From Magnetovibrio sp. (GTDB taxonomy: Bacteria; Pseudomonadota; Alphaproteobacteria; Rhodospirillales; Magnetovibrionaceae), in contig JAESUA010000032.1 in NCBI GenBank assembly GCA_016763255.1, forward strand, positions 1-19,145: 19,145 bases of DNA, in the 5' to 3' direction. Positions 594-19,145 of the stretch are shown in pieces (position 1 is the first letter of the stretch; the number at the start of each line of letters is the position of its first letter). The notes under the pieces are model-generated. The model had not been told where the DNA came from. It saw nothing but the letters and a program-made list of their open reading frames with translations, and did no database searches. The translations under genes were made by a program, and so were the position numbers.

Positions 594-2228
594 CTATGCG
601 CGGCCAGAATCACGGGCGGTGGCAAGATTGAGGGCGGCGGAAATTTTGCCTTGATCGAAGCTGCGCCAGCGCGCGGCCACATGTTGATCGGGACGCAACA
701 AGTACGTGGTGCCGGGCTGGCCGTCGTAGCGTTCAGCCAAGCGGTCCTTGGCATCGATGATGTCTTTGCCGACCACCATCACATCGCAACGGATGCCATC
801 AACCACGATGTCGCTGACACCGGGGTCTTGGCCAAACACCAAGGCCGTGAAGCGTTCGCCAACGGTATTGAGGAACCAACCGTCTTCGCCGTTTGTGGTG
901 ATCGGGGCATCTGCACAGTTGGTGCCGGGGCGCATCTCACCGGCAAAATCAGCGGTATCAGCGGTGTTGAGCGAACTGTTAATATAAGGTGTGGGCATCG
1001 ACAAACGACCCGAGTTCACCAGCGGACGGGCAAACTCATTTTCATTGGCCAAGTCCAAAACCGCATCGCGAAACGCCGTGCTGACGGTGCTTTTGGGCGA
1101 GATGAAATCGGTTGAACGGGTTGAGTTCATCAAGTTATCGGCGGCCGCGAAAACACGTTCTTCTGAGTAGGTGTTCAACAGACTGTCGGGGGCATTGGCA
1201 TCGATGACCAATTTGAGCTTCCAGCCCAGATTGTCAATGTCTTGCACCCCGGTATTGGCACCACGGGCACCAAACGGCGACACCTGGTGAGCGCTATCAC
1301 CGGCAAAAAACACATGGCCGCAGCGAAAATCTTGCAACTGGCGACAGGCGAATTGATAAACGGACACCCATTCCAGTTCAAATTCTTTATCTTCGCCGAG
1401 CATGGCTTTCAGCAACGGGATGACATTTTCCGGCTTTTTGGCTTCTTCCGGATCGGCGTCCCAGCCCAGCTGGAAATCGATCCGGTAGACATCATCGGAT
1501 TGCTTGTGCAGCAACACCGACTGGCCGCGATGGAACGGTGGGTTGAACCAGAACCAGCGTTCCGCCGGAAAATCGGCCTTCATCACCACGTCGGCGATCA
1601 AGAAACGATCTTGGAAAAACTGGCCTTCAAATTCCATGCCGAGCATTTTGCGGGCATCGGAATTGGCCCCATCACACGCCACCACCCAATCGGCTTCCAT
1701 GGCATAGACGCCATCGGGGGTTTCCACCTGCAGTTTGACGTAGCTGTCGTCGTCAACATTCTTGATGGAAATGGTTTTTGATTTCCAGCGAAGGTCGATC
1801 AAATCGCCATAATCCTTGCAGCGTTCGATCATATATTCTTCAAGGTAGTACTGCTGCAAATTGATGAAGGCGGGAATTTTGTGATCTTCTTCGGGTAACA
1901 GATCAAATTCATAGACCTGTTTATCATCGCGAAACACACGGCCGACTTTCCATTCGACGCTTTTTTCGATCATCGGCTTGGCGCAACCCAAACGGTCCCA
2001 AACTTCCAGCGGGCGTTTGGCATAACACACCGCACGCGAACCGATGGAGACGGTGTTGCCGTCATCTAAGATCACCGTCTTGATGCCTTGCTCGGCAAAT
2101 TGTAGGGCGGTGGTCAGGCCGACCGGACCGGCACCGATGACCACCGCTTGATGGCGCACGGCGGTCCCGGTTTTTTGCTCGTCCGATTGAACGTATTCAA
2201 ATTCGGGGTACTCATAAGTCTGTAACAT
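594..2228 (-). CDS. FAD-dependent aromatic hydroxylase (class A flavoprotein monooxygenase)
   Basis: The product is 544 residues, in the MhpA-like group of flavoprotein hydroxylases, which use NAD(P)H and O2 to hydroxylate a phenolic acid in the cytoplasm. Visible motifs are the N-terminal dinucleotide-binding GAGPVGLTTALQFAEQG, the DG motif in ACDGANSDARKMLG, and the second FAD motif GDSAHQVSPFGARGANTGVQD. Length and motif order are normal for the family. I chose the ATG at 2226-2228 because GGGAG lies about 10 nt upstream and the protein then begins MLQTYEYPEF. A longer open frame to 2324 exists, but its extra residues lie inside the FAH gene. In context it could produce homogentisate or a related 1,4-dihydroxylated ring from a hydroxyphenyl acid. 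The family is secure and the substrate is inferred. Confidence 0.88.
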   Translation of the reverse strand: MLQTYEYPEFEYVQSDEQKTGTAVRHQAVVIGAGPVGLTTALQFAEQGIKTVILDDGNTVSIGSRAVCYAKRPLEVWDRLGCAKPMIEKSVEWKVGRVFRDDKQVYEFDLLPEEDHKIPAFINLQQYYLEEYMIERCKDYGDLIDLRWKSKTISIKNVDDDSYVKLQVETPDGVYAMEADWVVACDGANSDARKMLGMEFEGQFFQDRFLIADVVMKADFPAERWFWFNPPFHRGQSVLLHKQSDDVYRIDFQLGWDADPEEAKKPENVIPLLKAMLGEDKEFELEWVSVYQFACRQLQDFRCGHVFFAGDSAHQVSPFGARGANTGVQDIDNLGWKLKLVIDANAPDSLLNTYSEERVFAAADNLMNSTRSTDFISPKSTVSTAFRDAVLDLANENEFARPLVNSGRLSMPTPYINSSLNTADTADFAGEMRPGTNCADAPITTNGEDGWFLNTVGERFTALVFGQDPGVSDIVVDGIRCDVMVVGKDIIDAKDRLAERYDGQPGTTYLLRPDQHVAARWRSFDQGKISAALNLATARDSGRA

Positions 2229-3279
2229 TATATTTAGTCTCCCTGTGCGTTGCGCCTTTATTGATGAGGCTCGTAACGCACGACTTTTTGATCGATGGCA
2301 CCAAATATCGTACGGCCTTGGCATCCTTCATTTCAATGCGGATGCGATCACCAAACTTCATGAACGAGGTTTTCGCAGCGCCTTCATCGATGGTTTCGAT
2401 CATGCGGATTTCGGCGATGCACGAATATCCCAATCCCCCCTCGGAAATCGGTTTGCCCGGTTGACCGTTCAATTTATTTGACACCGTGCCGGACCCGATC
2501 ACCGCGCCCGCGCCCAACGGGCGGGACTTGGCGGCATGGGATATCAACTTGGGAAAATTAAAGGTCATGTCGACACCCGCTTCGGGTTTGCCAAACGGCT
2601 GATCGTTTAAGAATGACATCAAGGGCAATTCAACCTTGCCTTCTTTCCAGGCATCACCCATTTCATCGGGGGTCACCGCAACCGGCGAAAAAGCGCTGGA
2701 AGGTTTGGACTGAAAAAAGCCAAACCCCTTGGCCAATTCACCAGGGATCAATCCGCGCAAGGACACATCGTTAACCAACATCAAGAGCTTGATGTGATCA
2801 CCGGCCTTAGCATCGCAAATTGCCATCGGTACATCATCGGTGATCACCGCGATTTCGGCTTCAAAATCGATGCCCCATTCTTCGGTTTCCATCTCGATAT
2901 CATCACGCGGACCAATGAATTGATCGGAGCCGCCTTGATACATCAAGGGATCGGTCCAAAAGCTTTCCGGCAAGACTGCGCCACGGGCTTTGCGCACCAA
3001 TTCAACATGGTTCACATATGCCGAACCATCGGCCCATTGGTACGAACGCGGCAGCGGCGATTCACATTTGGCCTGATCAAAATCAACAGCCCCATCTACG
3101 TCTGCGTTATTGAGGCGATCTGACAGGGCCGCTAATTTCGGCGCAATTTCAGCCCAATTTTCGAGGGCCGCCTGCATCGTCACGGCGATGTCGGTGGCGG
3201 GCGCGCAGATCTTAAGATCACGCGAAACAACCACCAACACACCATCACGGGTGCCGTTTTTTAGGGTAGCGAGCTTCAT
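2212..3279 (-). CDS. Fumarylacetoacetate hydrolase family protein, apparent C-terminal frameshift
   Basis: As sequenced this encodes 355 residues. The FAH family hydrolyses C-C bonds of ring-cleavage products, here probably fumarylacetoacetate to fumarate and acetoacetate. Visible signatures are EIAVITDDVPM, KPSSAFSPVAVTPDEMG, GAGAVIGSGTVSNK and the late GDRIRIEMKDA. The start is the ATG at 3277-3279 after AAAGGAA, 13 bp from the VOC stop codon. After MKDAK the reading frame yields an unlikely tail that ends inside the next gene. Adding one G to the GGCC at 2314-2317 gives GRTIFGAIDQKVVRYEPHQ and a TAA at 2258-2260. That is the normal family ending (about 340 residues) and leaves a proper gap with ribosome-binding site before the hydroxylase. 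The intact gene is therefore probably 2258-3279. A sequencing error or a recent mutation would both explain it. Confidence 0.88.
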   Translation of the reverse strand: MKLATLKNGTRDGVLVVVSRDLKICAPATDIAVTMQAALENWAEIAPKLAALSDRLNNADVDGAVDFDQAKCESPLPRSYQWADGSAYVNHVELVRKARGAVLPESFWTDPLMYQGGSDQFIGPRDDIEMETEEWGIDFEAEIAVITDDVPMAICDAKAGDHIKLLMLVNDVSLRGLIPGELAKGFGFFQSKPSSAFSPVAVTPDEMGDAWKEGKVELPLMSFLNDQPFGKPEAGVDMTFNFPKLISHAAKSRPLGAGAVIGSGTVSNKLNGQPGKPISEGGLGYSCIAEIRMIETIDEGAAKTSFMKFGDRIRIEMKDAKAVRYLVPSIKKSCVTSLINKGATHRETKYNVTDL

Positions 3280-3292
3280 ATTGCGGGTTCCT

Positions 3293-3826
3293 TTAGCCGA
3301 ATTCTTTGGTGTGCATCCACTGGGCTTGCTTGGGCGCTTTTTTGGTTTTGTCCCACTCTTCAAGCATTTCCCATTTCACGTCGTCGAGCTTCTTGCTCAT
3401 TTCCGGGGTGCCGGTGTTCACGGCCAATTCCAGACGGTGACCATTGGGGTCGCGGAAATAGATGGACTCAAAAATCGTGTGATCGGTCACACCCAGAACT
3501 TCGATACCATCGGCTTCGAGGCGGGCCCGGACTTTTTCAATGTAGTCCATGGAATCAACGCGGAACGCCAAGTGCTGCACCCAGTCCGGGGTATTCGGAT
3601 CACGGCCCATTTCCGGCGAATTGGGAATTTCAAAAAATGCCAAGACGTTGCCATTGCCCGCATCCAAGAAGATATGCATGTAAGGGTCCGGTGCCTTGGT
3701 CGAAGGAACCTGGTCTTCGGCAATCGCCAAAACAAAATCCATGTCCAGATATTTGCCATACCATTCGACGGTTTCCTTGGCATTTTTGCAGCGATAGGCA
3801 ACGTGATGAATTTGTTCAATAGGCAT
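3293..3826 (-). CDS. VOC (glyoxalase/extradiol dioxygenase fold) family protein
   Basis: This 177-residue protein is one paired VOC unit plus a C-terminal tail. Putative metal ligands are His8 (IHHVAY), Glu66 (FFEIP), His85 (QHLAFRV) and Glu133 (HRLELAV). This spacing matches the His-Glu-His-Glu set of glyoxalase I, and YFRDPNGHRLEL is the usual VOC C-terminal motif. The ATG at 3824-3826 has GGGAGG close upstream. It is the first gene of the leftward operon. It could be a glyoxalase-like isomerase, an unusual small extradiol dioxygenase or a lyase acting on a pathway intermediate; sequence alone does not decide. The fold is confident and the reaction is not known. Confidence 0.82.
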   Translation of the reverse strand: MPIEQIHHVAYRCKNAKETVEWYGKYLDMDFVLAIAEDQVPSTKAPDPYMHIFLDAGNGNVLAFFEIPNSPEMGRDPNTPDWVQHLAFRVDSMDYIEKVRARLEADGIEVLGVTDHTIFESIYFRDPNGHRLELAVNTGTPEMSKKLDDVKWEMLEEWDKTKKAPKQAQWMHTKEFG

Positions 3827-4230
3827 GAGAGCCTCCCTTTTCGTATTTTTGCTCCTCAGCGCCCCGCACGTGGCCTGGCGCCCCTTGTTCTCTTGACTCG
3901 ATCATTAGTTACAAATGAAATGAAAGCAATATAATTATTCTGAATTTAGCTACGTATGGGGGTATACGGACCCCATAAATTGCCCAAGAATTTCTCTATA
4001 ACTAAAATTTAATCATCCAATATCAATTACATAAAATGAATTTGCGAAAATATCTTGAAATTAGTTTCATCTGCAATGATTATTGTTTCATACGAAATTA
4101 GCTCACCTCTCCAACAACAGGCGGGGTCTCCAATCGGGTTTTTTCGAAAAAGCCTGCAGACGTCGGCACTTAGAGTATCCGGCGCGGCAAAAAACCAAAT
4201 AAGGCATACCGAACTGGGAGGTTCAAACAC
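3827..4230. promoter_or_regulatory. Divergent regulatory region between the two catabolic operons
   Basis: This 404-bp AT-rich stretch holds no convincing gene and must contain the promoters of both operons. Symmetric elements seen are TATGGGG-N9-CCCCATA at 3955-3977, TCATT-N7-AATGA at 3902-3918, TGAAA-N4-TTTCA at 4056-4069, a second TTTCAT and GAAATTAG pair at 4086-4101, and the palindrome TTTTTCGAAAAA at 4140-4151. A MarR regulator is encoded in the rightward operon, so one or more of these may be its operators; which one cannot be told from sequence. The dctP ribosome-binding site GGGAGG lies at the right end. I could not assign -35/-10 elements with confidence. Confidence 0.5.
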
Positions 4231-5850: not shown

Positions 5851-7151
5851 ATGTCCCCAATCACACTCGGCCTCATCGCCTTTGCCGGTATGTTCGTACT
5901 GATCGGCTTGCGGGTACCGGTGGCTATTGCCATGGGCGTTGTCGGCGCAATCGGTGGATGGATACTCAACGGCACCGATAGTGTCGCTTTCATCATGGGT
6001 TCGGTGCCGTTCGAAGCGGTTTTCCCCTACAGCCTTTCGGTCATTCCGCTGTTTGTTTTGATGGGTGTGTTCGCGGCGCGGGCGGGGCTTTCAAGCTCAC
6101 TTTATGACGCCGTCAACGCGTTCATCGGCCATTATCGCGGTGGACTTGCGATGGCCACCATCGGCGCATGCGCCGCATTTGGTGCGATTTGTGGATCAAG
6201 TTTGGCCACCGCCGCTACCATGTGCCGCGTCGCCATGCCGCAGATGCGCCGACACAATTACGACGACGGCCTCGCCGCCGCTACGGTCGCCGCGGGCGGT
6301 ACCTTAGGCGTGTTGATCCCGCCGTCGGTGATCATGGTGATCTACGCCATCCTCACCGAGCAATCGATCGGCAAAATGTTTGCCGCGGCACTGATCCCCG
6401 GCGTGATTGCGACCGCCCTTTATATGGCTGCGGTGTTCGTTCAGACGTGGCGCAATCCAGACCTTGGTCCGCCGGCGAACGCGTCGATTGGTACGGCCGC
6501 ATGGTTGCGATCAAAAATGTCTGGATGGTCTTGCTGTTGTTTGGGGTGGTCATCGGCGGCATTTATATGGGATGGTTTTCGCCCACCGAAGCCGCAGCCA
6601 TCGGTGCCATGGGGGCTTTTTTCCTGGCCTTGATCAAGCGCATGATCAATATGTCGGTGCTCAAAGAATGCTTCACCGAAACCGCCTCGACCAGTGGCAT
6701 GATTTTCCTGATATTGGTCGGCACCGCATTATTCAATTATTTTGTTGAAACCACCGGCATGCCTCAAGCCCTGATCGCCCAAGTGAGTGGCCTGGGCTGG
6801 CCGCCGATGGCGATCCTCATCATGCTGGTGGTATTTTACATCTTCCTGGGCTGCTTTATGGATGCCCTGTCGATGTTGTTGTTGACCTTGCCGTTCGTCT
6901 TTCCGCTGATCGTCAGCCTGGGTTTTGATCCCATTTGGTTTGGTATCATCATGGTCTCGGTGGTTGAGGTCGGCCTGATCACCCCACCTGTGGGCATGAA
7001 CCTGTTCATCATCATGGCCGGCACGCCGGGCCTCAAGCTGCAAGTGATCAGCCGTGGGGTATTGGCATTTTTGTTGGCCGACGTGGTGCGTCTGGCGCTA
7101 TTGATTTTGATCCCTGGGCTGTCGTTGTGGCTGCCGACGTTGATGGAGTAA
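5851..7151 (+). pseudogene. dctM: TRAP transporter large permease DctM, disrupted by an apparent one-base deletion
   Basis: The frame starting at 5851 encodes the N-terminal half of DctM, with family sequences such as GLRVPVAIAMG, PLFVLMGVFAARAGLS, GAICGSSLATAATMCRVAMPQM and GGTLGVLIPPSVIMVIYAILTEQSIGKMFAAALIPG. It then goes out of frame and stops at 6633. The rest of DctM (GERVDWYGRMVAIKNVWMVLLLF to LSLWLPTLME, including GCFMDALSMLLLTLPF and VGLITPPVGMNLF) is in another frame up to the TAA at 7149-7151. One extra G in the GG at 6474-6475 reads LGPPGERV and gives one continuous protein of 433 residues, the normal DctM length with about 12 helices. Both halves look well conserved, so this is either a sequencing error or a very recent mutation. 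If real, the transporter is inactive. Confidence 0.88.
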
Positions 7152-7155
7152 GCAC

Positions 7156-7578
7156 GTGAGCAATGTGATGCAATGGAAACCGGAATATTCCGTCGGTATT
7201 GAAGAAATCGACCGTCAACATCAAGGCTTGATCGAACTGATCAACCTGTTGTCCCGAGATGAAATCAGCACCGGCCTGATGGCCCGCATGTTTGACGAAC
7301 TCGAAGCCTACACCAAGGAACATTTCACAACCGAAGAACGCCTGCTAAAAACAGCTGGCTTTGATGACTTAAAAGCCCATCGCAAGGAACACAAAGCGTT
7401 TGAGCAATGGCTGAGCGCGGTGCGCCAGACCTATGGTGTGGGGGTGACCTCACCGGCGCTTTTGGCGCAATCGGTCAATGCGTTTTTGCGCGACTGGCTG
7501 GTTAATCACATCTTGTCGTCCGATATGGCCTACAAAGACCATGTTGCGGCAAACCGCAGCACATATCTAGGGGAATAG
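7156..7578 (+). CDS. Bacteriohemerythrin (O2-binding di-iron protein)
   Basis: This 140-residue single-domain hemerythrin binds O2 reversibly at a di-iron centre. All seven ligands are visible: His22 (IDRQHQGL), His56 and Glu60 (EHFTTEE), His75 and His79 (HRKEH), His118 and Asp123 (WLVNHILSSD). The start is the GTG at 7156, four bases after the dctM stop, with GGAG 7 nt upstream inside the dctM end. It is cytoplasmic, with no signal peptide. Its place inside an aromatic-acid operon suggests O2 supply or buffering for the monooxygenase and dioxygenase steps; this link is inference. Confidence 0.93.
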   Translation: MSNVMQWKPEYSVGIEEIDRQHQGLIELINLLSRDEISTGLMARMFDELEAYTKEHFTTEERLLKTAGFDDLKAHRKEHKAFEQWLSAVRQTYGVGVTSPALLAQSVNAFLRDWLVNHILSSDMAYKDHVAANRSTYLGE

Positions 7579-10680: not shown

Positions 10681-10735
10681 TCTCATAATCATGTGACACC
10701 ACACAGCATTATGCATGGCTGAATTCGTGTCATAT

Positions 10736-10751
10736 TGGCACGCAGTTTGCT
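10736..10751 (+). promoter_or_regulatory. Sigma-54 promoter of the response-regulator gene
   Basis: TGGCACG-CAGT-TTGCT is an essentially perfect sigma-54 site: GG at 10737-10738 and GC at 10749-10750 have the required 12-bp register. Transcription would start near 10762, about 90 bp before the ATG. A near-match to the enhancer palindrome seen at 14481-14611 (TGTCA-TAT-TGGCA, 10728-10740) overlaps the -24 box. The inverted pair TGACAC/GTGTCA lies at 10694-10699 and 10727-10732. Confidence 0.82.
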
Positions 10752-10854
10752 ATGCTATCATTGTGATGTGTGGCGGAACGCCTTTTCTCGCATTATGCGA
10801 TTTGGGGGCGTTCACGAAAGCCTTATGGGGGGACTTGAAAAAGGACCGTTCACC

Positions 10855-12258
10855 ATGAAGCATGAGCTCCCTGATATGGCGTTGCTGCTGGTCGAAGATT
10901 CCCAGCCCATGGCGCATGTGTATCAAGAATATCTGCGTCCAGAACCCTACGATGTCACCCATGTGGACACCGGTCGAGGGGCGTTGGATGTGCTTCGTCA
11001 TTCGCCGCCACGGGTGGTCTTACTGGACCTTAAACTTCCGGACATGGATGGTCTGGATATTCTTTATGAAATTGGTGCAATGGAACTGGACTGCACGGTG
11101 ATCGTCATCACCGCCAACGGTTCGGTCAAAACCGCAGTCGATGCCATGCGGCGCGGCGCGGCGGATTTTTTAGTCAAACCATTCAACGCCGATCGCTTGA
11201 TCGTGACCTTAAACAACGCCTTGGAAAAACAAGAGCTGTCTGACACCGTCAAAACCATCTGCGATGAACGCACTACATTTTGCGGTTTCATCGGATCTTC
11301 GCTGCCCATGCAAGCCGTTTATCGCATCATTGAAGAAGCCGCCCCCAGCAAGGCCAGTGTGTTCATCACCGGTGAATCCGGTACTGGCAAAGAAGTCTGT
11401 GCTGACGCCATTCATCAAAAAAGCCAACGCAAAAACAAACCCTTTATCGCCTTAAACTGCGCCGCAATTCCCAAAGATTTGATGGAAAGTGAAATTTTCG
11501 GCCATATCAAAGGGGCGTTCACCGGGGCCATGAAAGATCGCACAGGCGCGGCCCAAGAAGCCGACGGCGGAGTTTTATTTCTTGATGAAATTTGCGATTT
11601 AGATTTAAACCTGCAAGCCAAATTGCTGCGATTTATCCAAACCGGAACGATCCAAAAGCTGGGCGGCAACACCCCACAACAAGTCGACGTACGCATCATC
11701 TGTGCCACCAACAAATCACCTTGGGCGGAGGTCGAAGCCGGGCGGTTTCGCGAAGATCTGTACTTTCGCCTGCACGTGATCCCGATGGAATTGCCTGCGT
11801 TGCGCGTACGCGGCGACGACATCATGGAACTGGCCGAGCATTTTTTGAAAAAGTATGCCGCAGAAGAAGGCAAACCATTTGAAGGCTTCGAAGCGCCCGC
11901 CGAAGACGTTTTGCGCAATCATGCATGGCCCGGAAATGTTCGCGAATTGCAAAATATCATCCGCAACATGGTGGTTTTAAACACCGATAACTTTATCACC
12001 AATCACATGATGCCGGCACAATTGCAGACCACGGCAGCAACCGCCGCGCCAATCGCGGATGCATCCATTGCCCCGCCAATGATCCACCCTGCACCGCTGG
12101 TGATTAAACCAATGAAAGAAGTAGAATGGGATTACATTCAAGAAGCCTTGGCATTGTGCGGCAACAATGTGCCCAAAGCTGCGGCACTCTTGGACATCAG
12201 CCCCTCAACAATATATCGGCGCATTCGTGAGTTCAGCCCCCGGCATGCGGCACAGTAA
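10855..12258 (+). CDS. LuxO-like sigma-54-dependent response regulator
   Basis: This 467-residue NtrC-class activator has three parts. The receiver is at about 9-120, with acidic pair Glu14-Asp15, phosphoacceptor Asp58 ([13 protein letters not shown]), Thr86 (VITA) and Lys108 (VKPF). The AAA+ domain is at about 144-375, with Walker A GESGTGKE 173-180, an intact sigma-54 contact loop GAFTGA 220-225 and Walker B LFLDEI 241-246. A Fis-type helix-turn-helix is at about 424-460. The receiver-AAA linker and [38 protein letters not shown]-type sequence resemble Vibrio LuxO closely. The start is the ATG at 10855, chosen for AAGGA 9 nt upstream; longer frames lack a good site. It is the natural candidate to drive the sigma-54 promoters upstream of itself, manC and the dehydrogenase. 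No histidine kinase is adjacent. Confidence 0.92.
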   Translation: [467 protein letters not shown]

Positions 12259-12273: not shown

Positions 12274-12851
12274 CGCGATGTGATGGGCGTGAACAAAAGC
12301 CCGTGTGGAGCGGCCAGCCGCAAGGCCGCGATGTGATACAAAAGTTTCACTTCGCCTGCAGCTGCACAGTGGCTCATGTCTTTCCATGACTTCAGTTCTA
12401 GAGCCATACTTTCCAGGTCGCCCGACGCCGGTGTGCGGGCCGCAAACGCCCCTCGGGCACTGAAAAAATGCCCCCGTCCGGCACCCAGGTTGCCATGCAC
12501 GGTGAACGAACCAAGGTGGTGCCACGTCGGTGCCGCATAGCCCGTTTCTTCCAAAAGTTCCCGCTGCACAGCATTTATTGGGGGCTCACCTTTATCCACC
12601 ATGCCGCCGGGAAAGGTTAGCGAGACATCGCGCAGGCCATGTTTGTACTGGCGCAGGCAGATGACCTTTTCGTTAACCGTTTCAGCGACCACCACAACAA
12701 AATCCGGCAACGTCAGTTGGTGGTAATCTTTCACCACATGACCGCTGTCGGTTTCAACCGTTTCCAAGGCGACCTCCATCCACGGGTCGGCCTTATAGAC
12801 AACCCGACGGTCAAGCACGTCCCAAAGGGGACCGGTATGAGATTTTTTCAT
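12261..12851 (-). CDS. Nudix hydrolase, NudK/ADP-ribose pyrophosphatase-like
   Basis: This 196-residue protein has a complete Nudix box at residues 83-105: GMVDKGE, seven residues, then RELLEETGY. The fold cleaves nucleoside diphosphates linked to another group, using Mg2+ held by the REXXEE glutamates. I use the ATG at 12849-12851. It overlaps the manC stop in a TGATG and has GGAG 8 nt upstream, whereas the frame could otherwise extend through three GTG codons. Coupling to manC suggests a sugar-nucleotide substrate such as GDP-mannose, or turnover of ADP-ribose or GDP-sugars; this is inferred from context. The stop is 2 bp from that of the convergent regulator gene. Confidence 0.88.
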   Translation of the reverse strand: MKKSHTGPLWDVLDRRVVYKADPWMEVALETVETDSGHVVKDYHQLTLPDFVVVVAETVNEKVICLRQYKHGLRDVSLTFPGGMVDKGEPPINAVQRELLEETGYAAPTWHHLGSFTVHGNLGAGRGHFFSARGAFAARTPASGDLESMALELKSWKDMSHCAAAGEVKLLYHIAALRLAAPHGLLFTPITSRAAQ

Positions 12852-14317
12852 CACCACCACTCCGCCGCATGGGCCGCATCGATGCGGCCATAGATATCAT
12901 CAAGCCGCACGATATCGTCTTCACCCAAATAATCGCCATATTGAACTTCGATCAGGTGCAAGGGTTGCTCGCTAAGATTGGCCAAACGGTGGATCGCTTC
13001 AACGGGGATATAGACGAATTCATTTTCATACATTATTTTGGTTTCTTCACCGACGGTGACTTGTGCCTCACCGCTGACGATGATCCAATGTTCGGCGCGA
13101 TGATGGTGGTATTGCGCCGACAACTTTCCACCGGGATCAACAACGATGTGTTTGACCTGATGCATGCCGCCATGATGGATGCCTTGATAGGTTCCCCACG
13201 GACGATGCACACAGGCCTGATGATCGGCCTCTACTTGATTGCGATGGCGCAAACGTTCAACGATATTTTTGACGTCTTGGGCATGATCTTTGGGCGCAAT
13301 CAGAACCGCATCGACGGTGTCGATCACCACGTAGTCTTCAAGCCCGATGGCGGCGATGACACGGCCGCATTCGCTGCGCACGTATGTATCGGTGCAATCT
13401 TGCAACACGACCTTATCATCACATTGATCCGCATCTGCCAAGTCGGCAAGGGCGGTCCACGATCCGACGTCACTCCAGCCAAAATCACCACGCACCATGG
13501 CGGCGCGCTGGGTGTGTTCCATCACCGCATAATCAATCGAGATGTCTTTTGCCATGGCAAATGATTTTGCCTCAGGACACATCATGCCACCGCCGCGCCG
13601 ACCACGTTCGATGGCCGTTTTGCAGGCATCAACGATGCCGGGGTGATGCTGTTCCAATTCCGCCAGATAACGTGAGGCCTTGAACAAGAACATGCCACTG
13701 TTCCAATGATAGGATCCGTCATCGATATACGCTTGTGCTGTTTCGCGGTTCGGCTTTTCCACAAAGTTTTGCACTTTGTATCCCTGCTCCACACCCTTAA
13801 GCGGGGGGCCTTCGTGGATGTATCCAAATCCAGTTTCGGGACGGATGGCTTTCATGCCAAAGGTCACCAGATAGCCCCGCTGCGCCGCAATCACCGCTTC
13901 AGCCACACAAGCATGAAAACGAGATTTACTTTCCAGAACATGATCGGATGGCATCACCAGCATCAAGGCATCTGGGTCATGTTGGGCTAAACTCAACGCC
14001 GCCAATGCAATCGCCGGGGCCGTATTGCGCCGCACCGGCTCCATGATCACCAGACTGGCATCTTGTTTGATTTCCTTAATTTGGTGCTCCACCAAAAAAC
14101 GAAAATCCTCTCCCGTCAGATAGGTTGGGGCGGCGTAACAACTGCGATCGCCAACCAACAATGCGGTGTCTTGCAACATGGTACGCTGGGTCACCATGGC
14201 CAGGAATTGCTTCGGCAAATCCGCGCGCGAAACCGGCCACAGCCGTGTACCCGCACCACCACACAAGATCACGGGGTGAACAATCACTTTATTGTTTGAG
14301 GGCTTTTTGCGCGCCAT
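12851..14317 (-). CDS. manC: Mannose-1-phosphate guanylyltransferase / mannose-6-phosphate isomerase (bifunctional)
   Basis: The product is 488 residues. The N-terminal nucleotidyltransferase makes GDP-mannose from GTP and mannose-1-phosphate; its signature GGAGTRLWPVSRADLPKQF is at residues 20-38, with FVEKPNRE further on. The C-terminal type II cupin isomerises fructose-6-phosphate and mannose-6-phosphate, with RPWGTYQGI, a His-rich metal site (SAQYHHHRAEHWIIVSGEA) and VYIPVEAIHRLAN. This is the AlgA/ManC/XanB architecture at normal length. I chose the ATG at 14315-14317, after AGGAG at 6 nt spacing; the longer frame to 14395 crosses the promoter. It precedes the Nudix gene with a 1-base overlap and diverges from the dehydrogenase. 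It supplies GDP-mannose to that enzyme. Confidence 0.95.
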   Translation of the reverse strand: MARKKPSNNKVIVHPVILCGGAGTRLWPVSRADLPKQFLAMVTQRTMLQDTALLVGDRSCYAAPTYLTGEDFRFLVEHQIKEIKQDASLVIMEPVRRNTAPAIALAALSLAQHDPDALMLVMPSDHVLESKSRFHACVAEAVIAAQRGYLVTFGMKAIRPETGFGYIHEGPPLKGVEQGYKVQNFVEKPNRETAQAYIDDGSYHWNSGMFLFKASRYLAELEQHHPGIVDACKTAIERGRRGGGMMCPEAKSFAMAKDISIDYAVMEHTQRAAMVRGDFGWSDVGSWTALADLADADQCDDKVVLQDCTDTYVRSECGRVIAAIGLEDYVVIDTVDAVLIAPKDHAQDVKNIVERLRHRNQVEADHQACVHRPWGTYQGIHHGGMHQVKHIVVDPGGKLSAQYHHHRAEHWIIVSGEAQVTVGEETKIMYENEFVYIPVEAIHRLANLSEQPLHLIEVQYGDYLGEDDIVRLDDIYGRIDAAHAAEWW

Positions 14318-14341
14318 GATGAGCTCCTGCTTGGTTGATTC

Positions 14342-14350
14342 GGGGGGGGG
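14342..14350. repeat. Nine-G homopolymer in the manC leader
   Basis: Nine consecutive G (C in the manC mRNA) lie between the predicted sigma-54 start site near 14368 and the manC ribosome-binding site. Such a tract is prone to length change, both in replication and in sequencing. No direct effect can be read from sequence. Confidence 0.6.
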
Positions 14351-14379
14351 CGGATAAACACCGTCCCGGACCCACAGGG

Positions 14380-14394
14380 GCAACGGCTGTGCCA
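14380..14394 (-). promoter_or_regulatory. Sigma-54 promoter of manC
   Basis: On the minus strand the sequence TGGCAC-AGCCG-TTGC is a near-perfect -24/-12 site with the correct 12-bp GG-to-GC register. It is placed about 65 bp before the manC ATG, with a predicted start near 14368. No competing sigma-70 promoter of comparable quality was seen between it and manC. Confidence 0.78.
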
Positions 14395-14480
14395 AAGCCG
14401 CAGATCAGCAACAAAACACATTAAAACAACCCACTAACCTCAGCAGGCCAGTACCAACGGCATTCTTATATGGTTAAGAT

Positions 14481-14684: not shown

Positions 14685-14699
14685 TGGCATGGCTTGTGC
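14685..14699 (+). promoter_or_regulatory. Probable sigma-54 promoter of the GDP-mannose dehydrogenase operon
   Basis: TGGCATG-GCTT-GTGC keeps the essential GG (14686-14687) and GC (14698-14699) in a 12-bp register, with two departures from consensus at weaker positions. The predicted start is near 14711, about 29 bp before the ATG with the ribosome-binding site in between. It is weaker by match than the other two sigma-54 sites in the window. Confidence 0.62.
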
Positions 14700-14739
14700 G
14701 GCTAAGGTTTCGGGTTTTCTTAAAAATGGAGTATCCGAT

Positions 14740-16524
14740 ATGAGCGCCGTCGAACATAAAATACAGTCCCAAAAAGCCAACGAGTTGTTTGAGCTGTTAA
14801 GTGAACACAAAAACAAATCCGTTTTAAGCATTTTTGGCCTTGGTTATGTGGGCGCTGTTTCAGCGGCCTGCTTCGCCGACCTCGGCCACTCCGTAATTGG
14901 CGTCGACCCGGACCAAAACAAAGTCGACACCATCAATCAGGGCCAATCGCCCATCGTCGAAGAAGGTTTGGCCGAGCTGCTCACCAAGGGTGTACGCACC
15001 GGCCTTTTGAAGGCCGACATCGACCCACACAGCGCCGTCATCAATTCCGACATTTCATTTGTCTGCGTCGGCACCCCTTCGACGCCTGACGGTGGATGTG
15101 ACCTGACTTACCTCAAAGCTGTGTCCGCTGAAATCGGCACGGCCCTGAAAAATAAAGATGGCTATCACGTGATTGTTTATCGCTCCACCGTACCGCCGGG
15201 AACCACCAACAATATTTTGCGCCCGATCATCGAACAAACATCCGGCAAGCGCGCGGGCAAGGACTTCGGACTGTGTTTTCATCCCGAATTTTTACGTGAA
15301 AGCTGCGCCATTGCCGATTTCCACGAGCCCCCAAAAACGGTTATCGGCGCGCAAGATACCCACAGCGCACACACCCTTGCCAAGCTCTATGACGGCATCG
15401 ATGACAACATCATCAACACCTCCATCGAAGTGGCCGAAATGGTCAAGTACACCGATAATACCTGGCACGCCCTGAAGGTTTCGTTCGCCAATGAAATCGG
15501 CAAACTGGGCCGTGCACTGGGCGTTGATAGTCACGAGGTGATGAATGTGTTCTGCCGCGATACCAAGCTCAACCTGTCTTCGTATTACATGAAACCAGGT
15601 TTTGCATTTGGCGGGTCATGCCTGCCCAAGGATGTGCGCGGCATCAACCATTTGGCCCAAGAAAATGGCGTGAAGATGCCGATCATCGGATCGATCATCG
15701 AAAGCAACACCGCCCAAATCGAACATGCCGCACGCATGATCATGGAATGGGGCGACGGACGCGTGGGTTTTTTGGGACTGACCTTCAAGGCCAACACAGA
15801 CGATTTACGCGAAAGCCCGGTACTGGAATTGCTGTCGATCATTCACCGCCTGGGCCGCGACATCAGCATTTACGACCCCAACTTAGATCTCGATACCGCC
15901 CTGCGTCATCATCTCATGCACAGCCGCCACGCGGGCGAAAGTGTTGAAAAATTAATGACTGATTTGCCCAATATGGTGCGCACCAGTGCGGCCTCCATCC
16001 TGGCCAGTTGTTCAACAATCGTCGTATCCCACAATACCCCGATGTTCCAACAGGCTGCCCTCCACCGCCGCCCGGAGCAACACGTCATCGATCTGGTGCG
16101 TGCCTTCGAAGGCACCGGCCTTGCCGATGAAGTCTTGGCCGCGGGAATGAACGACTATCTGCAAAAACCGGTGCATGCGCTGGAACTGACCAATATGGTG
16201 CGCAAATGGGCGCCACATCAGCGCAGCCAACGCATTTTGTTGGCTGAAGACGATTTGGCGCTTGGCCAAGTGACCCGCGCCAAATTGGAAAAAGCCGGCT
16301 GCATCGTCGATGTGGTGCGCGATGGCCGCAACGCCGCTTACGCCGCACGCGAAGCCGACTATGACCTTATCTTCATGGACATTTCCATGCCCAACATGGA
16401 TGGCATCGAGGCGACCAAAATTATCCGCTCTCACCACGGATTGCGATCTGGCGTACCCATCGTGGCCCTGACCGCACTCGCCACCCCAGAACTAAGCGAA
16501 ACCTATCACGGCATTTGCTGGTGA
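14740..16524 (+). CDS. algD: GDP-mannose 6-dehydrogenase (AlgD type) with an in-frame permuted receiver-domain insertion
   Basis: The product is 594 residues. AlgD oxidises GDP-mannose to GDP-mannuronate with two NAD+. Visible elements are the NAD motif GLGYVGAVSAACFADLGHSVIGVD, CVGTPSTPDG, YRSTVPPGTT, the AlgD-typical DNTWHALKVSFANEIGKLGRALG, catalytic Cys294 in GFAFGGSCLPKD, and GLTFKANTDDLRESPVLEL. The protein ends ETYHGICW; AlgD also ends GICW. Between VIDLVRAFEGTG and that end lie about 124 extra residues (461-584) that are receiver-domain sequence in permuted order: the C-terminal part with Lys476 (DYLQKPV), then the N-terminal part with Asp504-Asp505, phosphoacceptor Asp547 (FMDISMPNMDG) and Thr578 (VALTA). 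Without it the enzyme is about 470 residues. The start at 14740 follows TGGAG by 8 nt; an upstream in-frame ATG at 14689 overlaps the promoter. Confidence 0.9.
   Translation: MSAVEHKIQSQKANELFELLSEHKNKSVLSIFGLGYVGAVSAACFADLGHSVIGVDPDQNKVDTINQGQSPIVEEGLAELLTKGVRTGLLKADIDPHSAVINSDISFVCVGTPSTPDGGCDLTYLKAVSAEIGTALKNKDGYHVIVYRSTVPPGTTNNILRPIIEQTSGKRAGKDFGLCFHPEFLRESCAIADFHEPPKTVIGAQDTHSAHTLAKLYDGIDDNIINTSIEVAEMVKYTDNTWHALKVSFANEIGKLGRALGVDSHEVMNVFCRDTKLNLSSYYMKPGFAFGGSCLPKDVRGINHLAQENGVKMPIIGSIIESNTAQIEHAARMIMEWGDGRVGFLGLTFKANTDDLRESPVLELLSIIHRLGRDISIYDPNLDLDTALRHHLMHSRHAGESVEKLMTDLPNMVRTSAASILASCSTIVVSHNTPMFQQAALHRRPEQHVIDLVRAFEGTGLADEVLAAGMNDYLQKPVHALELTNMVRKWAPHQRSQRILLAEDDLALGQVTRAKLEKAGCIVDVVRDGRNAAYAAREADYDLIFMDISMPNMDGIEATKIIRSHHGLRSGVPIVALTALATPELSETYHGICW
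16120..16491 (+). other. Circularly permuted receiver (REC) domain inserted in the AlgD-type gene
   Basis: This 372-bp segment (124 codons) encodes the tail of a receiver domain (LADEVLAAGMNDYLQKPVHALELTNMVRKW), a linker, then the head of a receiver (RILLAEDD to GVPIVALTALATPE). Joining the end to the beginning gives LATPELADEVLAAGM, with 13 residues between ALTA and GM, the same spacing as ordinary receivers. It therefore equals one complete domain, or one period of a tandem receiver array, cut in the helix after beta-4. Breakpoints are uncertain by several residues because the native dehydrogenase sequence here is not known to me. Confidence 0.8.
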
Positions 16525-16558: not shown

Positions 16559-17995
16559 ATGTTAAACACCCTTCAGCCTCCTAAAAACCCCGCCATACCT
16601 GAACTGTCTGAGGCCCACCGGTTCGACCCTAGCATCTTGCGCGAATACGACATCCGGGGTGTGGTGGGTGAAACCATCACCGTGATGGATGCCAAAGCCA
16701 TTGGTTTGGCCTTTGGCACCATGGTGCGACAACTTGGCGGCACCAGGGTGTGCATTGGCCGTGATGGCCGCATCCATTCTCAGGCCCTTTATTCGGCCCT
16801 GGCAAAGGGGCTGCAAAGCACCGGCATCAATGTCATCGCCATTGGCGTGGGGCCAACCCCGATGTTGTATTTTGCCGATCGCGTATTTGAATCCGATGGT
16901 GCCATCATGGTCACCGGGTCGCACAACCCACCTGAATACAACGGCTTTAAACTGGTCCTTGGCCATCAACCATTTTTCGGTGAAGACCTTCAAAGCCTCG
17001 GCCAATTGGCTGGCGAAGGCAGTTTTGTCGAAGGCGATGGCCGCCGCAGCAATGTTGATATAGCAGGTAAATATATCAACGCGTTGGACAGTAGTTCGAT
17101 TGCACGTCCGCTCAAAGTTGCCTGGGATCCAGGTAACGGTGCGGCAGCACAAATCACAGCGCAATTGGTACGCCGTCTTCCCGGACACCATATCGTGATC
17201 AATGAAGAAATCGATGGAACATTCCCCAATCATCACCCCGATCCGACGGTGCCGGAAAATCTCGAGCAATTGCGCGACGTCGTGATCCGCGAGCACTGCG
17301 CCTTTGGCATCGCATTTGATGGCGATGGTGATCGCATCGGTGTGATTGACGACGAGGGCGAAATTCTGTGGGGTGATCAACTGTTAAGCCTGATCGCCGA
17401 AAGCGTTTTGAACGCCAACCCCGGTGCCACCATCATCGCCGACGTCAAAGCCAGTCAAATCCTCTTTGATCGCATCACAAAATTGGGCGGTCGAGCCATG
17501 ATGTGCAAAACCGGCCATTCCCTGATCAAATCAAAAATGAATGAAACTGGGGCCATCTTGGCTGGCGAAATGAGTGGCCATATGTTTTTTGCCGATCGTT
17601 ATTTTGGCTTCGATGATGCGCTGTACGCGGCTGTTAGATTGTTGGAAGTGGTCGCCAGTCGTACCCAGCCCTTATCGTCATATCGCAAAGCTTTGCCGCA
17701 AGTTTACAACACCCCGGAATTACGCATCGAATGCCCCGATGAGCTAAAATTCAAGGCACTCGCGACCATCGAAGACACGGTCGCGCAAAGTGGTGCCGAT
17801 GCCATCACCATCGATGGCGTACGCGTCACAACCCAAGACGGTTGGTGGCTCTTGCGTGCCTCCAACACCCAACCCGCACTGGTCGCACGATGTGAATCAC
17901 AAACCTTTGCAGGGCTTGCATCGCTCAAAGCGACTCTTATCGAACACCTCAGATCTGCTGGCGTGACGGTGCCCGATAACCTCAAAAATAACTGA
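16559..17995 (+). CDS. Phosphomannomutase/phosphoglucomutase (AlgC-type)
   Basis: This 478-residue alpha-D-phosphohexomutase interconverts hexose 6- and 1-phosphates and feeds mannose-1-phosphate to ManC. The phosphoserine loop is TGSHNPPEYNGFK with Ser121. The Mg2+ loop DGDGDR is at 254-259, the sugar loop is GEMSGHMFFADRY, and the phosphate-binding loop of domain IV is RASNTQPALVARCES near the C-terminus. All four domains are present at normal length. The ATG follows AAAGGA and lies 34 bp after the dehydrogenase stop, so it belongs to the same operon. A short Pro-rich N-terminal extension (about 20 residues) precedes the core. Confidence 0.94.
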   Translation: MLNTLQPPKNPAIPELSEAHRFDPSILREYDIRGVVGETITVMDAKAIGLAFGTMVRQLGGTRVCIGRDGRIHSQALYSALAKGLQSTGINVIAIGVGPTPMLYFADRVFESDGAIMVTGSHNPPEYNGFKLVLGHQPFFGEDLQSLGQLAGEGSFVEGDGRRSNVDIAGKYINALDSSSIARPLKVAWDPGNGAAAQITAQLVRRLPGHHIVINEEIDGTFPNHHPDPTVPENLEQLRDVVIREHCAFGIAFDGDGDRIGVIDDEGEILWGDQLLSLIAESVLNANPGATIIADVKASQILFDRITKLGGRAMMCKTGHSLIKSKMNETGAILAGEMSGHMFFADRYFGFDDALYAAVRLLEVVASRTQPLSSYRKALPQVYNTPELRIECPDELKFKALATIEDTVAQSGADAITIDGVRVTTQDGWWLLRASNTQPALVARCESQTFAGLASLKATLIEHLRSAGVTVPDNLKNN

Positions 17996-18027: not shown

Positions 18028-18345
18028 ATGTCCGCCTCATCCCACTCCCCTTACTCACTGTACATTCCGGAGCTGCACATCCGCTGCTCCAATGACAAAA
18101 AACTGTTTGCATTGAGTCACATCGCGCAAGATATTATGGCGCAAACACGGCCCACAAGCATCCTCAGCGGGGTGCATGTGATAATGGAGGACGGCTGGTG
18201 GATGGTCCGTGCCGACGATCACGATCCGGCCCTCATTGTCCGTGCCCAAGCCAGCAGCGAGGCTGGATTGGCACACTTAAAACGCACCCTCGCCAACCAC
18301 TTGGATAGGGTCTGCCTAGATTTCCCCCTGTCCCACTTAGATTAA
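18028..18345 (+). CDS. Stand-alone paralogue of phosphohexomutase domain IV
   Basis: The 105 residues align along their length with the last domain of the mutase encoded just upstream: PELHIRCSNDKKLFALSHI against PELRIECPDELKFKALATI, then DGWWMVRADDHDPALIVRAQASSEAGLAHLK against DGWWLLRASNTQPALVARCESQTFAGLASLK. The phosphate-binding RASNTQP has become RADDHDP, so phosphosugar binding is unlikely to be conserved. The ATG has TGGAG upstream and lies 32 bp after the mutase stop. It has no domains I-III and cannot be an enzyme by itself. It may be a regulatory or decoy subunit of the mutase, or a duplication remnant still under translation; the intact frame and good ribosome-binding site favour a real protein. 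Confidence 0.82.
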   Translation: MSASSHSPYSLYIPELHIRCSNDKKLFALSHIAQDIMAQTRPTSILSGVHVIMEDGWWMVRADDHDPALIVRAQASSEAGLAHLKRTLANHLDRVCLDFPLSHLD

Positions 18346-18620: not shown

Positions 18621-19145
18621 CTATGCAGCTTGATTTTCGAGGTATTTTTTAAGCGCAACAAACGCATGATCAACTGCTTCACGCAGATCATCCGTCATCG
18701 TGAAGGCATGTTTTACATTGCCTGTTTTACAGTGCGATTCGATGGCCCGGGCAATGGTGTGAAGTTGCATCGCACCGAATGTCGCGGATGAACTGCCGAT
18801 GGTATGGCATTCCAGTTCCAACGTATCGGCATCCCCCAACATTTCAGCATCGGCAATGCGCTCCATGCGCTCCGCAACATCGCTGAAAAATGAGTCGAGG
18901 AACTTGGGAATCAGCGCCTCATCGGTTTCGGTCGCCAACTCGGCCAATATGGATGCATCAAATATTGTGGTGGCATTGAGCGCCGGTATTTGATCGGGCA
19001 TATTGGCCTTAACCACAGCGCGTTGATCATCCTTCGTCCATCGCGCCAGCATTTCCAAGACCGGGGCACGGCCCACCGGCTTAGCCAAATAATCATCCAT
19101 ACCGGCGGCCAGGATGCCTTCACGATCACCGACCATGGCATGGGC
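18621..19145 (-). CDS. Hybrid histidine kinase, C-terminal receiver and Hpt domains (partial)
   Basis: The frame is open to the window edge, so only the last 174 residues are visible. The first part, AHAMVGDREGILAAGMDDYLAKPV followed by VLEMLARWTK, is the C-terminal end of a receiver domain including its conserved Lys. After a linker, an Hpt domain follows (LIPKFLDSFFSDVAERMERI, then the phosphorylatable His in LECHTIGSSSATFGA and LHTIARAIESHCK). The usual HxxKGSS is HTIGSSS here, so the Lys is missing. The arrangement is that of a BarA/EvgS-type phosphorelay kinase with receiver(s) and a C-terminal Hpt. The kinase core and sensor would lie beyond the right edge. The internal ATG at 19134-19136 is not the true start. 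The target regulator is unknown. Confidence 0.88.
   Translation of the reverse strand, partial: AHAMVGDREGILAAGMDDYLAKPVGRAPVLEMLARWTKDDQRAVVKANMPDQIPALNATTIFDASILAELATETDEALIPKFLDSFFSDVAERMERIADAEMLGDADTLELECHTIGSSSATFGAMQLHTIARAIESHCKTGNVKHAFTMTDDLREAVDHAFVALKKYLENQAA

What the first reader, a model, noticed from the sequence alone, without database searches (positions are those of the whole stretch)
16120..16491. A circularly permuted receiver domain sits inside an AlgD-type GDP-mannose dehydrogenase
The dehydrogenase reads normally to VIDLVRAFEGTG, then 124 in-frame codons of receiver sequence follow, then the AlgD-like ending ETYHGICW. The receiver parts are in the order tail then head. 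They contain every key residue (Lys476, Asp504/Asp505, Asp547, Thr578) and the join restores normal spacing. Receivers tolerate few permutations, and direct insertion of one into a sugar-nucleotide dehydrogenase is not something I know of. If it folds, phosphorylation could control GDP-mannuronate supply. A simple origin is one period of a tandem-receiver kinase gene inserted by microhomology.
Basis: partly seen in the sequence, partly recalled or inferred. Interest (0 to 1): 0.9.

Follow-up and report, generated by a model that had tools for sequence, protein, structure and literature searches.

The report
Permuted receiver inside an alginate-precursor dehydrogenase
Some marine bacteria carry, inside the enzyme that makes the building block of alginate-like slime, a rearranged copy of a bacterial signal-switch domain that probably lets a nearby sensor kinase turn the enzyme up or down directly.

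Summary
ORF 14740-16524 encodes a GDP-mannose 6-dehydrogenase whose C-terminal loop (VIDLVR...YHGICW) holds about 125 extra residues: a receiver domain in the order tail (half alpha4-beta5-alpha5) then head (beta1-beta4-start of alpha4). Two protein searches listed 62 clusters with this architecture; eight loci, window included, were located. In 61 clusters inspected the phosphorylation residues are almost invariant (Asp547 60/60, Asp504 61/61, Glu/Asp503 61/61, Thr/Ser578 60/60, Lys476 60/61). The insert is under purifying selection and, modelled alone, forms one confident domain (pLDDT 87, pTM 0.84).

Seven of eight loci lie near a hybrid kinase (HisKA-HATPase-REC-Hpt). In those seven genomes that kinase's own receiver is the genome's closest relative of the insert (rank 1 of 17-41). 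An outgroup with plain AlgD already has such a kinase beside it. Best reading: the phosphorelay phosphorylates the dehydrogenase and sets GDP-mannuronate supply. Phosphotransfer, its sign and its effect on the enzyme are untested. Seven searches of open-access papers listed nothing describing a permuted receiver or this fusion.

The parts
14740..16524 (+). AlgD-REC: GDP-mannose 6-dehydrogenase with internal permuted receiver (594 aa; longest ORF starts 14689)
14740..16101 (+). dehydrogenase part up to VIDLVR (residues 1-454)
16120..16209 (+). receiver tail: second half of alpha4, beta5 (Tyr473, Lys476 at 16165-16167), alpha5
16228..16494 (+). receiver head: beta1 (Glu503/Asp504 at 16246-16251) to beta4 and start of alpha4; Asp547 at 16378-16380, Thr578 at 16471-16473
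16501..16521 (+). AlgD-type ending TYHGICW
10735..12258 (+). sigma-54-dependent response regulator, LuxO-like (601.8 bits, below the family cutoff of 800)
12851..14395 (-). mannose-1-phosphate guanylyltransferase/mannose-6-phosphate isomerase
16559..17995 (+). phosphomannomutase/phosphoglucomutase (PgmG)
18621..19145 (-). 3' end (receiver tail and Hpt) of the nearby hybrid kinase; the rest is on contig C34, which overlaps the window end by 57 bases with one mismatch

Best explanation
A GDP-mannose 6-dehydrogenase under direct two-component control. A receiver, circularly permuted with the cut inside alpha4, is built into the loop before the enzyme's last conserved stretch. The nearby hybrid kinase (sensor-HisKA-HATPase-REC-Hpt) probably passes phosphate through its Hpt to Asp547, and probably also to the sigma-54 regulator encoded nearby. 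Phosphorylation would shift beta4, alpha4 and beta5 (Thr578, Tyr473); since both joints to the enzyme lie at alpha4, this would move the YHGICW tail or the C-terminal domain and change GDP-mannuronate output. I lean to activation. Shown: architecture, permuted order, residue conservation, purifying selection, kinase nearby, receiver kinship. Inferred: phosphotransfer, effect on the enzyme and its sign, and that the polymer is alginate.
For: Permuted order by profile and confident single-domain model (solved receivers match the head). Phosphorylation residues kept in 60-61 of 61 fusions. dN/dS 0.01-0.11 in the receiver of four close relatives, 0.04-0.07 in the dehydrogenase. Insert and dehydrogenase distances correlate, 0 of 500 shuffles as high. 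Kinase nearby in 7 of 8 fusion loci, sigma-54 regulator in 6 of 8. In those seven genomes the nearby kinase's receiver is the best non-self match to an insert profile, rank 1 of 36, 29, 41, 24, 18, 17 and 25; the seven also outscore all 282 background receivers tested. GDP-mannose supply genes flank the fusion.
Against: No biochemistry. In G012 the kinase is not on the fusion's 39-kb contig; candidates lie on other contigs. L062 has no sigma-54 regulator beside it. Four of the seven kinase loci are close relatives. One outgroup (G539) has the kinase next to a receiver-less AlgD, so the kinase does not need the insert, and there its receiver leads only narrowly (104.5 against 100.7 bits). P0159 groups with the fusions but has no receiver. 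The whole-protein model is only fair (pTM 0.60) and no dimer was modelled. The sequential aligners did not test where beta5-alpha5 packs.
Confidence: 0.55

Rival explanations
1. The receiver is phosphorylated but does not act on catalysis: it is a docking, dimerisation or localisation handle bringing the enzyme to the kinase or polymer machinery, or a phosphate sink that tunes the kinase.
For: The same conservation and kinase kinship would be expected; plain AlgD next to the same kind of kinase exists.
Against: A terminal fusion would serve for docking; the insert instead lies within the enzyme's own C-terminal stretch, both flanks kept.
Confidence: 0.25
2. The two half-receivers do not close on themselves but pair in trans between protomers of the enzyme, so the switch is a domain-swapped receiver dimer rather than a permuted monomeric receiver.
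For: GDP-mannose dehydrogenase is a domain-swapped dimer (recalled); no coordinates or dimer model could be examined here.
Against: The insert alone is modelled as one compact domain, pTM 0.84, with a linker short between the halves.
Confidence: 0.12
3. Assembly chimera or recent neutral insertion.
For: The genome is fragmented (425 contigs, 67% complete) and the contig ends inside another receiver.
Against: Same junctions in 61 inspected protein clusters and in other genomes, one recorded as a strain (Kiloniella sp. EL199); low dN/dS.
Confidence: 0.01

Closest known systems
GDP-mannose 6-dehydrogenase AlgD (solved: 1mfz, 1muu, 1mv8)
   Same: Three dehydrogenase domains, closest solved sequence (E 1.8e-124), the invariant Cys (C294), the Y-x-G-I-C-W type ending
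   Different: About 125 residues of receiver inserted before the ending; 57 of 59 plain rows have 9 residues there
Receiver domains of hybrid kinases (PF00072), above all that of the nearby HisKA-HATPase-REC-Hpt kinase
   Same: Sequence, key residues, fold of the head; best match in its genome in 7 of 7 genomes with the nearby kinase
   Different: Permuted inside alpha4, both ends tied into an enzyme
Response regulators with enzymatic output (CheB, PleD, RpfG; recalled)
   Same: A receiver joined to an enzyme
   Different: Those have an unpermuted receiver at or near a chain end (recalled); here it is internal and the enzyme is a sugar-nucleotide dehydrogenase
cRec domain of jumbo phages (PMC7824862, passages read)
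   Same: A divergent receiver fold
   Different: Proposed cyclic-phosphate hydrolase, said never to be found in histidine-kinase systems; the passages do not call it permuted

Membership tests
GDP-mannose 6-dehydrogenase (AlgD type) | NAD-binding, central and C-terminal dehydrogenase domains | tested here: met
   all three above the Pfam cutoff
GDP-mannose 6-dehydrogenase (AlgD type) | Closer to GDP-mannose than UDP-glucose dehydrogenases; invariant Cys; GICW-type end | tested here: met
   (Cys in 61 of 61 fusions and 59 of 59 plain rows)
GDP-mannose 6-dehydrogenase (AlgD type) | Oxidises GDP-mannose to GDP-mannuronate | not testable with these tools
   needs an assay
Receiver domain (PF00072) | Profile match and phospho-acceptor, acidic pair, Thr/Ser, Lys | tested here: met
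Receiver domain (PF00072) | Normal linear order beta1 to alpha5 | tested here: not met
   tail before head; so it is a permuted relative that may work like a receiver, not an ordinary member
Receiver domain (PF00072) | Receiver fold with beta5-alpha5 packed as usual | tested here: inconclusive
   head matches solved receivers; tail not aligned by sequential aligners; model pTM 0.84
Receiver domain (PF00072) | Phosphorylated by a histidine kinase or Hpt | not testable with these tools
   kinase nearby and kin receiver are circumstantial
Response regulator with enzymatic output | Receiver at a chain end followed or preceded by an output domain | tested here: not met
   the receiver interrupts the enzyme's C-terminal part; it may still work like one

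The most novel reading that the evidence does not exclude
A naturally circularly permuted receiver, derived from the nearby hybrid kinase's own receiver, was spliced into a sugar-nucleotide dehydrogenase and kept as a phosphorelay-driven allosteric valve on the committed step of an alginate-type polymer, so that one relay sets both transcription (sigma-54 regulator) and enzyme activity.
Probability: 0.5. Interest if true: 0.88.

Novelty: new variant of a known kind. Interest (0 to 1): 0.8.

Why it matters
A conserved permuted receiver with both ends tied into an enzyme would show that this fold tolerates a cut in alpha4 in nature and would be a natural template for phosphorylation-switched enzymes. 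It would also be a direct two-component switch on a committed exopolysaccharide step, faster than transcription. One carrier, Kiloniella sp. EL199, is recorded as a strain, so it may be testable in culture.

Tried and rejected
Assembly chimera: rejected. Ordinary non-receiver extension: rejected. Tandem-receiver donor: not supported; each of the four nearby kinases scanned and the window's shows one receiver stretch. The receiver tree has only 88 columns and is poorly resolved (inserts need 4 changes), so descent from the kinase receiver rests on scores. Single origin of the fusion: the tree needs 5 changes of the label, yet one clade is not rejected (p-AU 0.466); neither is shown.

How common: in the order, 15 of 317 genomes had an AlgD- or UDP-glucose-dehydrogenase-type match at E <= 1e-72; 2 carry the receiver, 12 do not (endings), 1 (G061) is a fragment without C-terminus. 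In an even draw of the class, 5 of 385 matched the fusion-specific profile: the window's own and four that match only to about position 90 of 125; G463 of these was read in full and is plain. So the fusion is rare. Of 37 loci in the genome-contig scan, 7 are full fusions; the other 30 matched part of the query, mostly its receiver end, and were not examined. P0229 is counted as a fusion from its length and listed domains only. The protein lists show the best 120 rows of 1352, 8000 and 7995 matches, so the count of 62 is a lower bound.

Papers: nine searches; seven bear on novelty (all but 48 and 82), open-access library only; one search listed 15 of 18. Passages read of PMC7824862, PMC12918730 and PMC5907407, none about a permuted receiver; all other papers seen as listings. 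The names Alg8, Alg44, AlgI, AlgX, AlgJ for genes in L057/L062 are recalled: NCBIfam gave nothing above its cutoffs, AlgK at 40 of 700 bits; Pfam gives glycosyltransferase 2, PilZ, MBOAT and Sel1; searches found no solved relative and only DltB.

Full report
What is there. The frame 14689-16524 (+) is open throughout; 14740 is the likelier start and gives the 594-residue protein P0001, whose numbering I use. Pfam finds the three dehydrogenase domains and one Response_reg. The nearest solved sequence is GDP-mannose 6-dehydrogenase (1mfz, E 1.8e-124), ahead of a UDP-glucose dehydrogenase (1.4e-72). A GMP/PMI gene and a phosphomannomutase gene flank it.

Not an artefact. G012, a MAG of another genus of the same family, has the protein at 74% identity including the ending. 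The genome-contig scan gave seven full fusions: L057 (Rhodospirillaceae NORP128, the same contig as G012's), L058 and L060 (Hyphomicrobiales), L059 and L061 (Rhizobiaceae), L062 (Kiloniella sp. EL199) and L063 (UBA6062). Protein searches listed 61 fusions among 120 rows and one more (P0229). In the 61: Lys476 60 and one Arg; Glu/Asp503 61; Asp504 61; Asp547 60 of 60 and Thr/Ser578 60 of 60 (P0156 breaks off before them); the switch-position residue 473 is Tyr in 50, Phe in 6, other in 5. In 57 of 59 plain rows the place holds 9 residues.

Selection and history. Among the six pairs of L058-L061, dN/dS of the receiver is 0.01-0.11 and of the dehydrogenase 0.04-0.07; pairs with the window or L057 are saturated. 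Over 59 fusions, insert and dehydrogenase distances correlate (r 0.74 tail, 0.68 head; the two dehydrogenase halves 0.87), 0 of 500 shuffles as high. The dehydrogenase tree needs 5 changes of the label, but one clade is not rejected (p-AU 0.466).

Neighbourhood. In L058-L061 a hybrid kinase, a phosphonate-type binding protein, a sigma-54 regulator and GMP/PMI lie within about 8 kb upstream of the fusion; in L063 the kinase and a sigma-54 regulator follow it; L062 has the kinase and a single-domain receiver (L059 and L061 kinases judged by 77% and 86% identity to L060's). In the window the sigma-54 regulator is at 10735-12258 and the contig ends inside a kinase at 18621-19145. Contig C34 overlaps that end by 57 bases with one mismatch and carries the rest: Tll0287-like sensor, PAS domains, HisKA, HATPase and REC; the Hpt is in the window. 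That the two contigs adjoin is inferred from this overlap. So 7 of 8 fusion loci have the kinase nearby. G012 has none on its 39-kb contig but has two kinases elsewhere whose receivers score 122 bits, one behind a frame that resembles the binding protein by eye. Among 12 stretches round plain AlgD-type genes, 1 (G539) has the kinase and sigma-54 pair; two more have partial, mainly PAS-region hits. Four of the seven are close relatives and the plain stretches differ in length (6.8-19 kb), so this is suggestive only.

Kinship of the receivers. A profile of 14 insert heads was run on nine genomes. Leaving out the insert itself, the nearby kinase's receiver ranks first among receivers found at E <= 1e-9 in each of the seven genomes (of 36, 29, 41, 24, 18, 17 and 25). 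Leads run from 14 bits (117.6 against 103.3, G702) to 55 (116.1 against 61.1, G697); in the window's genome 125.3 against 80.6. In G539, with plain AlgD, the kinase beside AlgD also leads, narrowly (104.5 against 100.7, of 31). The seven receivers score 111-121 bits on a profile of all the insert heads, above all 282 background receivers taken from earlier hits (best 106); G539's scores 99.7. I read this as descent of the insert from that kinase's receiver, or shared specificity for its Hpt, or both, with kinase and AlgD neighbours before the insertion.

Mechanism. Shown: an enzyme with a conserved, selected, permuted receiver near a kin kinase. Inferred: the Hpt phosphorylates Asp547; in ordinary receivers Thr/Ser and the beta5 aromatic then move alpha4-beta5 (recalled); here both tethers are at alpha4, so the enzyme's last stretch would feel it. 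The sign is unknown; I lean to activation. The cue may differ by lineage: a Tll0287-like sensor in the window, a phosphonate-type binding protein in L058-L061.

Novelty. Receivers that gate enzymes are known (recalled), so this is a new variant of a known kind. Searches listed no paper on a permuted receiver or this fusion; they cover open-access papers only. Database names seen are 'nucleotide sugar dehydrogenase' and 'GDP-mannose 6-dehydrogenase'.

Noticed in passing
window 18028-18345 (+): Small ORF (105 aa) resembling the C-terminal part of the neighbouring phosphomannomutase (40% over its residues 380-472); a counterpart follows the mutase in G012 (L054 14030-14308, 31%). Pfam gives only a sub-threshold DUF2218.
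   Followed up: partly
window 5851-7151 (+): Two overlapping frames (260 and 327 aa) look like one TRAP transporter large subunit split by a frame break near 6600 (by eye).
   Followed up: no
P0159 (491 aa): Groups with the window's fusion clade (support 85) but has a 39-residue charged stretch in place of the receiver: perhaps a loss of the insert.
   Followed up: partly
L050 (G061) 111-638: AlgD fragment 73% identical to the window, cut at both ends and running into an unrelated gene: broken copy or assembly fault.
   Followed up: partly
L118 (G012 C50) about 647-3890: Frame resembling the binding protein of L058-L061 (by eye) followed by a hybrid kinase 56% identical to the window's over its kinase part, away from the fusion.
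   Followed up: partly
P0155: A fusion from a MAG labelled Pseudomonas marincola: mislabelled bin or spread outside Alphaproteobacteria.
   Followed up: no
window 7156-7578 (+): ORF that looks hemerythrin-like by eye, after the TRAP genes.
   Followed up: no
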